From positions 1 to 34,225 of the forward strand of contig JAHEDY010000022.1 in assembly GCA_024640985.1 (NCBI GenBank): DNA of 34,225 nucleotides. Reading direction: 5' to 3'. The position numbers and the translations under genes were made by a program. This document shows positions 728 through 5,119 of this stretch, in pieces. Positions within the stretch are counted from its first letter, which is position 1, and the number at the start of each line of letters is the position of its first letter. The stretch comes from Gammaproteobacteria bacterium. Lineage in GTDB: Bacteria > Pseudomonadota > Gammaproteobacteria > Pseudomonadales > Litorivicinaceae. Below the pieces are notes generated by a model that worked only from the letters and a program-made list of their open reading frames with translations, searched no databases and was not told the DNA's origin.

Positions 728-2909
<2,182 letters not shown>

Positions 2910-2955
2910 ATCCAAAGGCCCGGAGTCTAGGGAGTTTGAAAAAATTGGCAAGGCG

Positions 2956-3555
2956 TTAGGATCGGACAAAATCTAACAACTTCTGATAGTCGTGCCGATC
3001 CGCACGCTTCAGTGCTTGAATGTAATCCGAACGAATCGTTCTTGGGTCCTTTGCGTTCCGAGCGCCCCAAGTAAACCGAGGACAGCCTCTCGAGACGAGG
3101 AGCACATCTGCAGCGAGACGTGCATGCCTCCCGTTACCGTTTGGGTAACAGTGAATGAACACGAGCCGGTGATGAAATCTTGCAGCAATCTCATCTATCG
3201 AATAAACCGCGTGCTCAAGCCAGAAGTTGCAATCATCACAGAGGAGCTTCAACTCGCCAGGGATACGATACGCATCGACCCCAATATTTTTTCCTGATTT
3301 TCTGAATCGTCCGGCCCAGTTCCAAACCCGTCCAAACATGCGTTGATGCAATGCATTCAAAAAATCGATCTGCGTAACATCACGATCTCTTTTAAAGACC
3401 CACTCTTCAGCTGCGAGAATGTTCGCTTGCTCGGAACGGTTCAGTTCGCCCCGAGACATGATATGTGACTGAATCAGCCCTTCCTTCTCTTCTACGGATA
3501 ACAGCGTTGCATCTTGTGCAGATTGAAAAATATCGTTCGTCACTCTCCTTCCCAA
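2956..3555 (-). CDS. Mobile mystery protein B: Fic-domain protein
   Basis: Fic proteins usually transfer AMP or another nucleotide moiety to a target side chain. This 199-residue protein carries the Fic active-site loop at residues 135-146 as HCYPNGNGRHAR: the catalytic His and the GNGRxxR anion-hole/phosphate residues are intact, while the usual HPF is HCY. The upstream helix segment (ALHQRMFGRVWNWAGRFR, about residues 68-85) is also typical. Length and its HTH partner match the 'mobile mystery protein B' family, which I recall as nearly always adjacent to protein A. It overlaps the partner gene by 16 bases. The start is uncertain: a TTG at 3553-3555 is used here, while a GTG at 3541-3543 forms a GTGA overlap but has AAGGAG too close. 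No canonical SxxxE(G/N) inhibitory motif was seen; SVEEKEG at residues 20-26 is only a near match. Confidence 0.85.
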   Translation of the reverse strand: MGRRVTNDIFQSAQDATLLSVEEKEGLIQSHIMSRGELNRSEQANILAAEEWVFKRDRDVTQIDFLNALHQRMFGRVWNWAGRFRKSGKNIGVDAYRIPGELKLLCDDCNFWLEHAVYSIDEIAARFHHRLVFIHCYPNGNGRHARLAADVLLVSRGCPRFTWGARNAKDPRTIRSDYIQALKRADRHDYQKLLDFVRS

Positions 3556-4007
3556 ATATCTGAACGTGCGCTCATCTTCATCTTCTGAATCAATTGTTCA
3601 AGCTGCACCGCTGTCGTGTCATCGGCAACCGCCTGATCTTCGAGCATCATCGAGTGAGAAATGGCTGCGATTGAGTTGGACGCTTTCTGTTTCACACGTT
3701 GTTCAACCATCTCTTGGAGCGAATGCCTTGGAACGAGAGCGTAGACCAATTCACAATCAAGTGCGTTAGCTGCTCTCGCGAGATTTTTAATGGTCAATGA
3801 CCCCGTCTGCTCAGCGACTTCCATGGCAACGACTCTCGACTGTGATACACCGAGCCTTGAACTTAGCTGCGTCGTAGTCATCCCCAAAGCTTCTCGAATC
3901 GCTCGCACCCATCCGCGGTTCGGCTTATGTCTCGTTGGCAATAACCGCCACCGCTCAAGTATGGAGTCTAAATGCTCTCTTGCATTGAACCGCTCTTCTG
4001 AATTCAT
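3540..4007 (-). CDS. Mobile mystery protein A: XRE-type HTH partner of the Fic protein
   Basis: A 155-residue protein with an XRE-like helix-turn-helix in its middle (RAIREALGMTTTQLSSRLGVSQSRVVAME, roughly residues 34-62), followed by TIKNLARAANALDCELVYALVPR and a Gln/Met-rich C-terminal helix. This layout, including GW(V/I)RAIREALGM and CELVYALVP, is what I recall of mobile mystery protein A, the obligate neighbour of the Fic-domain protein B. It probably represses its own promoter and may act as the antitoxin-like partner; neither is shown by sequence. The chosen start is ATG 4005-4007, with AGGTGA five bases before it; a GTG at 4014-4016 would add three residues. It overlaps the Fic gene. 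Confidence 0.83.
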   Translation of the reverse strand: MNSEERFNAREHLDSILERWRLLPTRHKPNRGWVRAIREALGMTTTQLSSRLGVSQSRVVAMEVAEQTGSLTIKNLARAANALDCELVYALVPRHSLQEMVEQRVKQKASNSIAAISHSMMLEDQAVADDTTAVQLEQLIQKMKMSARSDIWEGE

Positions 4008-4025
4008 AAAAATCACCTATATATG

Positions 4026-4063
4026 ATAATTTGGCGAATTATAACCATTTATAAGTGATAAAT
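4026..4063. promoter_or_regulatory. Paired inverted repeats over the promoter of the HTH-Fic module
   Basis: Two perfect inverted repeats with identical 6-5-6 geometry: ATAATT-tggcg-AATTAT at 4026-4042 and ATTTAT-aagtg-ATAAAT at 4047-4063, with centres 21 bp (two helical turns) apart. A consensus -10 box read on the minus strand (TATAAT, plus coordinates 4038-4043) overlaps the first repeat, 31 bases before the ATG. This is a textbook layout for autorepression by the XRE-type protein encoded immediately downstream. Binding is inferred. Confidence 0.6.
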
Positions 4064-4163
4064 AAAAATAAAAATATCATTTATATATACTAAATACAGT
4101 AATTTCTACGCAGTTTAGATGACTTCGATAGAGACAACATTTCACGATAACCTTGGAAAGCAG

Positions 4164-4204: not shown

Positions 4205-4291
4205 GCCGAAGTGGTGGAACTGGTAGACACGACGGATTCAAAATCCGTTGCCTTTGCGGGCTTGGGGGTTCGAGTCCCCCCTTCGGTACCA
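4205..4291 (+). tRNA. leuX: tRNA-Leu, anticodon CAA
   Basis: An 87-base class II tRNA with CCA encoded. The acceptor stem is GCCGAAG with CTTCGGT, the anticodon stem ACGGA/TCCGT with loop TTCAAAA (anticodon CAA, reads UUG), a long variable arm, and a T arm GGGGG-TTCGAGT-CCCCC. The 5' half closely resembles E. coli leuX. The 1:72 pair is G-U rather than the usual G-C. This tRNA type is a common integration site for mobile elements in enterobacteria; here no integrase or duplicated 3' end was seen nearby. Confidence 0.97.
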
Positions 4292-4318
4292 AATTCCCAA
4301 CAGCGAAAAGATGCGCCC

Positions 4319-5119
4319 GTGTCAAAAGTCAGCTGCTACATCATCGCCTTCAACGAAGCCAACAAAATCCGCCCCGCCATCGAGAGTGTGATCGAGTGGG
4401 CCGATGAAGTGATTCTTTGTGATTCGCACTCGACCGATGAGACAGCCAGTATTGCCGAATCACTAGGTGCACGTGTTGTTCAAATCGACTTCCACGGCTT
4501 TGGGAAATTACGTAATGACGCGATCGCAGCTTGTCAGCATGAGTGGATTTTCTCATTGGATTCCGATGAACGCTGCACACCTGAGGCCCGCGATGAAATC
4601 CTCTCGATTGTTCGGAAGAATAAGGCAGACGGTCCGGTTGCCTATTTTATGCCGCGACAAAATTATCTGCTGGGCCGCTGGGTAAAATACTCAGGCTGGA
4701 ATCCCGATTATCGGCAGCCTCAATTATTTCGACGAGGTCATTTGAGCTACACCCTTGAAGAGGTCCACGAAGGTTTTATCTGTGACGGTCCAATTGGACA
4801 TCTCTCACAACCCATTTGGCAGTTCCCTTTCGAGAATCTTGAGCAGATGCTTCATAAAGCACAGCGATACTCCACACTCGGTGCGCAAAAACTCCTCCGA
4901 AACCAGAAAAAGGGTGGCATGGGACCTGCGTTGATCCATGGGCTTTCGATGTTTTTGAAAATCTATCTGCTGAAAAGTGGCTGGCGTGATGGACGCGCAG
5001 GGTTTGCAATTGCCATTGGTGGATTTATCGGTGCGTTCTATAAGTATGCGAAACTAGCAGAACTGCAAAACGATTGGACGGAACCAAACATGCCTAAAGT
5101 CGGAAAGCCCAAGTCATGA
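4319..5119 (+). CDS. Family 2 glycosyltransferase, WaaE/KdtX-like (LPS core or envelope glycan)
   Basis: A GT-A fold family 2 glycosyltransferase. The N-terminus has the nucleotide-binding strand YIIAFNEANKI (residues 7-17), then LCDSHSTDETASIAESLG, and the metal-binding DxD as LDSDER (Asp81, Asp83). The region RNDAIAACQHEWIFSLDSDE and the later GRWVKYSGWNPDYRQPQLFRRG are characteristic of the LPS-core beta-1,4-glucosyltransferase (WaaE-like) group. The start chosen is GTG at 4319-4321, because translation from any upstream start would run through the tRNA. It begins 28 bases after the tRNA, so read-through from the tRNA promoter could express it. It overlaps the next gene by ATGA. The exact acceptor is unknown. 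Confidence 0.88.
   Translation: MSKVSCYIIAFNEANKIRPAIESVIEWADEVILCDSHSTDETASIAESLGARVVQIDFHGFGKLRNDAIAACQHEWIFSLDSDERCTPEARDEILSIVRKNKADGPVAYFMPRQNYLLGRWVKYSGWNPDYRQPQLFRRGHLSYTLEEVHEGFICDGPIGHLSQPIWQFPFENLEQMLHKAQRYSTLGAQKLLRNQKKGGMGPALIHGLSMFLKIYLLKSGWRDGRAGFAIAIGGFIGAFYKYAKLAELQNDWTEPNMPKVGKPKS

What the first reader, a model, noticed from the sequence alone, without database searches (positions are those of the whole stretch)
2956..4063. Mobile mystery A/B (HTH + Fic) module between a leuX-type tRNA and queA
The two overlapping genes match the paired families called mobile mystery proteins A and B, whose function is, to my knowledge, still undefined. The Fic motif is HCYPNGNGRHAR: the catalytic His and GNGRxxR are kept but Pro-Phe is replaced by Cys-Tyr. 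No canonical inhibitory-helix motif is seen in the Fic protein, so control may come from the HTH partner. No integrase or relaxase is nearby, so the module stands alone in a housekeeping operon. This is the best candidate here for an undercharacterised toxin-antitoxin-like or defence system.
Basis: partly seen in the sequence, partly recalled or inferred. Interest (0 to 1): 0.65.

Follow-up and report, generated by a model that had tools for sequence, protein, structure and literature searches.

The report
HTH-Fic toxin-antitoxin pair, brake identified

Summary
In detail: A (3540-4016, minus) and B (2956-3555, minus) score over the TIGR02612/TIGR02613 cut-offs and lie between tRNA-Leu(CAA) and queA. 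The module is not core: 0 of 21 other genomes of the genus has a B over the cut-off. Of 11 relatives whose queA/tRNA-Leu slot could be read, two keep A and share an in-frame internal deletion of B (one has also broken A), four hold other cargo, five hold no ORF of 100 aa. In 39 of 39 sampled genomes with B, A lies beside it; A without B occurs.

New point: after its HTH, A has five invariant residues in 104 pairs; four form [S/T/H]-M-x-L-E-x-Q, resembling the inhibitory motif (S/T)xxxE(G/N) of class I Fic antitoxins. In one of two AlphaFold models of A-stop-B read-throughs, A's Glu falls where class II Fic enzymes hold their inhibitory Glu; the second model did not dock A. B has Asn at the metal-ligand position in 103 of 104 copies, a variant that one published AMPylase shares.

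Best reading: a type II toxin-antitoxin module that works like class I FicTA, with brake and repressor joined in A. Toxicity, target and trigger are untested.

The parts
3540..4016 (-). mobile mystery protein A (HTH, proposed antitoxin and repressor); GTG 4016 or ATG 4007 start
   Evidence: TIGR02612 149.8 bits, HTH_3 33.7 bits
3744..3908 (-). HTH_3 domain of A (residues 37-91)
   Evidence: Pfam PF01381
3633..3653 (-). proposed inhibitory motif of A, S-M-M-L-E-D-Q (residues 122-128)
   Evidence: M, L, E, Q invariant in 104 of 104 pairs; S/T at -4 in 94 of 104; +1 is Asp here, not Gly/Asn
2956..3555 (-). mobile mystery protein B (Fic domain, proposed toxin); start TTG 3555 or GTG 3543
   Evidence: TIGR02613 238.6 bits, PF02661 43.4 bits
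3118..3153 (-). Fic active-site motif HCYPNGNGRHAR
   Evidence: His 104 of 104, GNG 104 of 104, first Arg 103 of 104, last Arg 104 of 104, Asn at position 5 in 103 of 104
4017..4086 (.). candidate operators of A: three TATAWRTGATA sites at 4017-4029 (+), 4049-4061 (+), 4074-4086 (-)
   Evidence: 3 of the 4 matches in the window, 0.28 expected, but the pattern was written after seeing the sites; related sites upstream of A in G009 (1 site) and G021 (3 sites)
2924..2951 (-). candidate ancestral queA promoter TTGCCA-N16-TAGACT
   Evidence: 9 of 12 consensus matches; TAGACT kept in 10 of 11 relatives by eye
4205..4291 (+). tRNA-Leu (CAA), boundary of the variable slot
   Evidence: ARAGORN
1848..2909 (-). 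queA (from likely ATG 2909), other boundary of the slot
   Evidence: listed from TTG 2969; relatives' reading frames align from the later start

Best explanation
A and B form a mobile type II toxin-antitoxin module that works like class I FicTA pairs. B is a Fic enzyme that, when free, transfers a nucleotide part (most likely AMP) to a target protein of its own cell and stops growth. A is made first from the same mRNA, represses the operon through its HTH, and inhibits B directly: the end of A's long C-terminal helix (S-M-M-L-E-D-Q in the window) inserts into B's ATP site so that its invariant Glu binds the last Arg of the Fic motif. Loss or displacement of A frees B and the promoter together. 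Shown here: family membership, strict linkage, the order of loss (B before A), patchy presence, and conservation of the tail motif. Supported by one model only: docking of that motif at the inhibitory site. Inferred: toxicity, nucleotide transfer, target, autorepression, trigger.
For: Linkage and polarity: in 398 Pseudomonadota genomes B is over the cut-off in 18 and all 18 have A beside it; in 385 genomes of another class of the phylum B is in 23, all 23 with A; two genomes are in both samples, so 39 of 39. Of the 80 best loci (of 543 confirmed, capped) from genome contigs, 80 of 80 have A upstream. B goes first: G009 has whole A and a B remnant; G021 has the same in-frame internal deletion of B and a stop in A; G612 has A and a decayed B. 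Tail motif: M, L, E, Q and a Trp are the only residues invariant in 104 of 104 pairs after residue 97; S/T stands 4 before the Glu in 94 of 104; a further 21 loci keep M.LE.Q in 21 of 21, with S/T in 12 and His in 9. Published brake: (S/T)xxxE(G/N), supplied in class I by a protein encoded just upstream, its Glu outcompeting the gamma-phosphate for the last Arg (PMC3667792, passages); [quoted passage not shown]). Register: with L113 read-through model residue 103 or 109 on FICD 215 or 221, E122 falls on 234 in 14 of 14 FICD rows, on SoFic 73 in 3 of 3 and FIC-1 274 in 2 of 2 rows, on C. difficile Fic 35 in 1 of 3 (34 in the other two) (3zec E73G, 5jj7 E274G, 4x2d E35A are from entry titles, FICD E234 is recalled). 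In G548 and G794, A stands alone and the motif segment is deleted while HTH and tail Trp stay. Activity: CccR, with the same Asn at position 5, AMPylates FtsZ (PMC9755527, passages).
Against: The second read-through model (L134, pTM 0.61) did not place A's helix on the Fic site: all 50 listed rows start at model residue 157 or later, and three class II rows start with B's own residue 166 on the inhibitory position. The window's motif has Asp, not Gly/Asn, after the Glu, and a sub-clade has His at -4. Solitary A in G144 (two copies), G531 and G700 keep the motif without any B nearby. A profile of 60 A tails finds no solved antitoxin (0 hits at E <= 10). Covariation between A and B was uninformative (effective 75.5 sequences; half of the top 200 pairs in the tail, which has 60 of 151 columns). 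Asp/Glu to Asn removes a magnesium ligand, and in Fic-1 the change E139A abolished AMPylation (PMC13327609, passages). No toxicity data were found.
Confidence: 0.7

Rival explanations
1. Toxin-antitoxin pair as above, but A inhibits only by repressing the operon or by binding B elsewhere; the conserved M.LE.Q segment serves A's own dimer or folding.
For: Second model without docking; four solitary A copies keep the segment; the +1 residue is mostly not Gly/Asn (A 37, D 25, N 24, Q 6 of 104 as the four commonest).
Confidence: 0.15
2. B is not primarily an AMPylating toxin: the Asn-variant Fic site does another reaction (another nucleotide, or mainly removal of the modification as a complex with A).
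For: Asn at position 5 in 103 of 104 copies and in 19 of 20 further motifs read, Asp in one. Fic-1-AntF is a deAMPylase that needs AntF Glu28; Fic-1 E139A and R143A lost AMPylation but kept deAMPylation (PMC13327609, passages).
Against: CccR has Asn at the same position and AMPylates FtsZ. All other motif residues for transfer are kept.
Confidence: 0.12
3. B restrains itself by an N-terminal helix (class II), e.g. its conserved T-x-R-x-E segment, and A is only a regulator.
For: [T/A/S] at B column 30 and Glu at column 34 in 87 of 101; in the second model B's N-terminal stretch reaches the inhibitory position in three rows.
Confidence: 0.08
4. An anti-phage abortive-infection system rather than a plasmid- or island-stability module.
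For: PADLOC candidate family PDC-S04, 76.8 bits; TIGR02613 listed among Fic/Doc systems in Tn7-like cargo (PMC8649781, one passage). The class II Fic protein Sofic is reported as a defence system (PMC12249575, passages).
Against: PDC-S04 is a candidate label, not a test; broad occurrence on plasmids (246 records) fits stabilisation equally well. The two roles are not exclusive.
Confidence: 0.3

Closest known systems
Class I FicTA pairs: VbhT/VbhA, EcFicT/EcFicA, Fic-1/AntF
   Same: Small gene directly upstream of a compact Fic gene; proposed brake motif with a conserved Glu at the end of a helix; B's model aligns to VbhT (Z 16.4 and 18.0), Fic-1 and EcFicT.
   Different: A is about 155 aa with an HTH domain, not a small helical protein (AntF residues 5-47 resolved; EcFicA two helices); no sequence match between the tails; +1 residue often not Gly/Asn; Asn at motif position 5 in B.
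Xre-Fic/Doc operons of Makarova et al. 2009
   Same: Fic/Doc gene beside an Xre-type HTH gene is listed there with 22 occurrences (PMC2701414, passages).
   Different: No inhibitory mechanism is given in the passages seen, and 'mystery' does not occur in that text.
CccR, class II Fic protein and transcription factor
   Same: Asn at motif position 5; brake motif; Fic activity and DNA-binding function combined (PMC9755527, passages).
   Different: One secreted chain, not a two-gene toxin-antitoxin pair.
[quoted passage not shown]
   Same: Both window proteins are over the cut-offs.
   Different: The families are annotated without function; the present reading supplies a mechanism.

Membership tests
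mobile mystery A/B (TIGR02612/TIGR02613) | score over the curated cut-offs | tested here: met
   149.8 vs 122.6 and 238.6 vs 124.4 bits
mobile mystery A/B (TIGR02612/TIGR02613) | A directly upstream of B | tested here: met
   39 of 39 sampled genomes with B
Class I Fic toxin-antitoxin (FicTA) | antitoxin gene immediately upstream of the Fic gene | tested here: met
   overlapping genes, A first
Class I Fic toxin-antitoxin (FicTA) | (S/T)xxxE(G/N) in the antitoxin | tested here: inconclusive
   Ser and Glu present in the window, next residue Asp; exact in a subset of relatives (24 of 104 have Asn at +1)
Class I Fic toxin-antitoxin (FicTA) | the antitoxin Glu meets the last Arg of the Fic motif | tested here: inconclusive
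   register agrees in one read-through model, not docked in the other
[quoted passage not shown]
   HCYPNGNGRHAR: Tyr for Phe, Asn for Asp/Glu; so B is not filed as a canonical AMPylator
Type II toxin-antitoxin | DNA-binding antitoxin encoded first, pair overlapping | tested here: met
   HTH_3 in A, GTGA or TTG overlap
Type II toxin-antitoxin | toxin not kept without antitoxin, antitoxin kept without toxin | tested here: met
   0 of 39 genomes with B lack A; A without recognisable B in G144, G531, G548, G700, G794 and G009
Type II toxin-antitoxin | B toxic alone, A neutralises by binding | not testable with these tools
   needs an expression assay
Class II Fic (brake in the Fic chain) | N-terminal (S/T)xxxE(G/N) helix in B | tested here: inconclusive
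Anti-phage defence system (PADLOC PDC-S04) | protection against phage | not testable with these tools
   sequence match only, 76.8 bits

The most novel reading that the evidence does not exclude
Mobile mystery A/B is a separate FicTA lineage in which one antitoxin chain is repressor, active-site brake and, through the same Glu, cofactor for undoing the modification: the Asn-variant Fic site works as a switch that modifies its target when A is lost and restores it when A returns, with operon repression tied to the same event.
Probability: 0.2. Interest if true: 0.7.

Novelty: new variant of a known kind. Interest (0 to 1): 0.52.

Why it matters
The two families are annotated widely (246 plasmid records have a B match) under a name that admits ignorance; in the library searched only six papers hold the names or model numbers, and the five of these whose passages I saw use them only as annotation or a table entry. 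If the reading holds, these genes become a testable Fic toxin-antitoxin lineage with one decisive residue to mutate (A Glu126), and they show a Fic brake joined to a DNA-binding domain, which links enzyme inhibition to gene control in one chain.

Tried and rejected
Integrative element at the tRNA 3' end: the module lies on the 5' side of tRNA-Leu, which reads away from it, and relatives show simple exchange of the interval, so no tRNA-borne integration was inferred. Phage origin: 1 phage record with a 31% partial match; 0 relatives in viral contigs with the window B alone; 6 with an alignment query. Sequence kinship of A's tail with solved antitoxins: 0 hits; Pfam: none for the window's tail, and only scattered matches, each in at most 2 of 60 members, best E 0.0039. 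Covariation: uninformative. No fold family is called absent from the Z lists. The whole A found only a chance match in the PDB (E 0.81).

Rows dropped before counts: I left out repeated views of the same loci, L004 (same contig as L054), L023 and L024 (no B), pairs with B under 150 or A under 90 bits (among them broken B in L006, and L141), then 3 identical pairs (107 to 104). The A tail motif was therefore counted on mostly intact pairs. Thresholds differed in the genome counts (B 1e-25, A 1e-12), which favours finding A; nearby B remnants were looked for only in the locus flanks. G650 counts as A without B in the tally but is a contig end with the start of B present; G095, G185 and a second place in G270 are A-type HTH domains fused to a nucleotidyltransferase-like domain, not true A.

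Full report
1. Check. The two ORFs, their strand and their families are as described. The single copy of B in the 1.63 Mb genome is this one. tRNA-Leu(CAA) and queA bound the interval. PADLOC gives B a candidate label, PDC-S04, 76.8 bits.

2. Presence in relatives. Of 21 other genomes of the genus (many incomplete), none has B over the cut-off; one has a weak Fic match. queA was found in 13 of the 21. With, the queA/tRNA-Leu slot could be read in 11: G009 and G021 keep A; G018 has a frameshifted Gp49-like/HTH pair; G001 a 57-aa piece resembling the start of that HTH protein (by eye); G005 and G014 each one ORF of over 200 aa that looks like a methyltransferase (by eye, not searched); G019, G008, G002, G012 and G020 no ORF of 100 aa in the interval. 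In G009 an intact Gp49-type toxin (PF05973, 75.2 bits) and HTH partner lie next to A. So this interval is a variable slot that has taken at least two kinds of toxin-antitoxin pair.

3. Order of decay. In G009 and G021, B is reduced to its first few and last dozen codons, joined in frame at the same place; A is whole in G009 (157 aa) and has an internal stop in G021. A differs from the window copy with dN/dS 0.36 (G009) and 0.14 (G021), so A stayed under some constraint; these are small counts on one gene. The B deletion leaves queA's upstream region in place.

4. Polarity over many genomes. In 398 Pseudomonadota genomes, B (over cut-off) occurs in 18, A (E <= 1e-12) in 21; all 18 B genomes have A beside it. 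In 385 genomes of another class of the phylum, B in 23, A in 29; all 23 with A. Two genomes recur, giving 39 of 39. A-only genomes by tally are 3 and 6; after inspection two are HTH-nucleotidyltransferase fusions, one is a contig end, one has a decayed B, and five (G144 with two copies, G531, G548, G700, G794) hold A with no B found in the flanks. Among the loci I saw whole A beside a broken or cut B (L006, L057, L069, L097) and no whole B beside a broken A, except L122, where the contig ends inside A. This is what a toxin that needs its antitoxin would leave.

5. Mobility. 246 plasmid records hold a B match (conjugative 103, mobilizable 24, non-mobilizable 119), mainly Agrobacterium (101) and Rhizobium (53). 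A tree of 81 B proteins puts the window's B outside a well supported 15-row clade (100/96) that holds B of G022, a genome of the same family; the two are therefore not one inherited copy. The window's own place (90/91, long branches) is unsure.

6. The brake candidate. In 104 unique pairs, the residues of A after position 97 that never vary are Met123, Leu125, Glu126, Gln128 and Trp155; four residues before the Glu stand Thr 62, Ser 32, His 8; after it Ala 37, Asp 25, Asn 24, Gln 6 as the four commonest. A further 21 loci keep M.LE.Q in 21 of 21, with Ser/Thr in 12 and His in 9 at -4. The published inhibitory motif of Fic proteins is (S/T)xxxE(G/N), found in antitoxins encoded immediately upstream (class I), its Glu competing with the ATP gamma-phosphate for the last Arg of the Fic motif (PMC3667792, passages), and in EcFicA it ends the first helix and enters the active site (PMC5033356, passages). 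The likeness is in spacing, place and invariance, not in detectable sequence kinship.

7. Structure. A and B of the window overlap in different frames, so six loci in which only one stop codon separates in-frame A and B were read through. The model for L113 has mean pLDDT 89.9 and pTM 0.74; A's helix 96-120 runs into the motif T118-N123. In VIA-align, 28 of 50 listed rows begin their alignment inside this A helix, and E122 then falls on residue 234 of FICD in 14 of 14 rows, 73 of SoFic in 3 of 3, 274 of FIC-1 in 2 of 2, and 35 of C. difficile Fic in 1 of 3 (34 in two), if there is no gap before the motif. The second model, L134, has pLDDT 89.2 and pTM 0.61 and does not show this: alignments start at model residue 157 or later, and in three rows B's residue 166 takes the inhibitory position. 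So docking is supported in 1 of 2 models. B's fold itself is clear in both (VbhT Z 16.4 and 18.0).

8. Solitary A as a natural test. If the motif serves B, A without B should be free to lose it. In G548 and G794 (one genus) the segment is deleted while HTH and terminal Trp remain. In G144 (twice), G531 and G700 it is kept, and in G009 too, where B was lost lately. The test is thus mixed.

9. B's chemistry. His, GNG and the last Arg are kept in 104 of 104 and the first Arg in 103, but position 5 is Asn in 103; in the later set Asn in 19 of 20 read motifs and Asp in one. The canonical residue binds magnesium (PMC3667792). CccR, with Asn there, AMPylates FtsZ (PMC9755527), so Asn does not exclude AMPylation. 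In Fic-1, E139A abolished AMPylation but not deAMPylation, which needs the antitoxin's Glu28 (PMC13327609); hence the novel reading.

10. Regulation. Three TATAWRTGATA-like sites lie within 70 bp upstream of A (3 of 4 matches in the window; 0.28 expected), with related sites at the same place in G009 and G021; the pattern was written after inspection and the region is AT-rich. Mesorhizobium loti mll2066, annotated mobile mystery protein B, is among the 50 genes with the highest M-values in a heat-shock study (4.02; PMC3989490, one passage), as a derepressed pair would be.

11. Known or new. Searches for the names and model numbers found six papers; in the passages of five (and, for the Tn7 cargo table, 57) the names are annotation or table entries; PMC3936711 and PMC4886054 I saw only in the listing. 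Searches on Fic with XRE/HTH antitoxins listed no paper whose title or shown passages describe this family; subscription papers, among them the 2012 classification of Fic inhibition (recalled; cited), are not in the library, so an earlier mention there cannot be excluded. Xre-Fic/Doc neighbours as a class were listed in 2009 (PMC2701414). I therefore call it a new variant of a known kind.

Noticed in passing
L165 (G009) 4297-4952: Gp49-type toxin (PF05973, 75.2 bits) and HTH partner stacked beside A in the same queA/tRNA-Leu slot; a frameshifted version of the pair in G018 (L025/L166).
   Followed up: partly
L161 1162-1791, L162 1453-2064, L164 1171-1827: Stand-alone proteins of about 204-219 aa join an A-type HTH (TIGR02612, about 91-96 bits, below cut-off) to a nucleotidyltransferase-like domain (PF01909 or PF18765; weak HalB/MntA matches; families scanned for L161 and L162 only). 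Their role is unknown.
   Followed up: partly
L210 and L213 1492-1959: Solitary A in one genus with just the M.LE.Q segment deleted, HTH and terminal Trp kept.
   Followed up: partly
L157 1450-1941 and L163 1456-2031 (G144): Two solitary A copies in one genome, both with the motif; no B over the threshold in that genome.
   Followed up: partly
L003 (G022) 129-1234: Another genome of the same family carries an A/B pair of a different lineage, upstream of a gene that looks like prfC (by eye).
   Followed up: partly
window 2924-2951: Promoter-like site between B and queA whose TAGACT is in place in 10 of 11 relatives; suggests that the module sits upstream of queA's own promoter.
   Followed up: partly
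L030 and L032, queA/tRNA-Leu interval: Single ORFs of 251 and 227 aa that look like methyltransferases occupy the same slot in G005 and G014.
   Followed up: no
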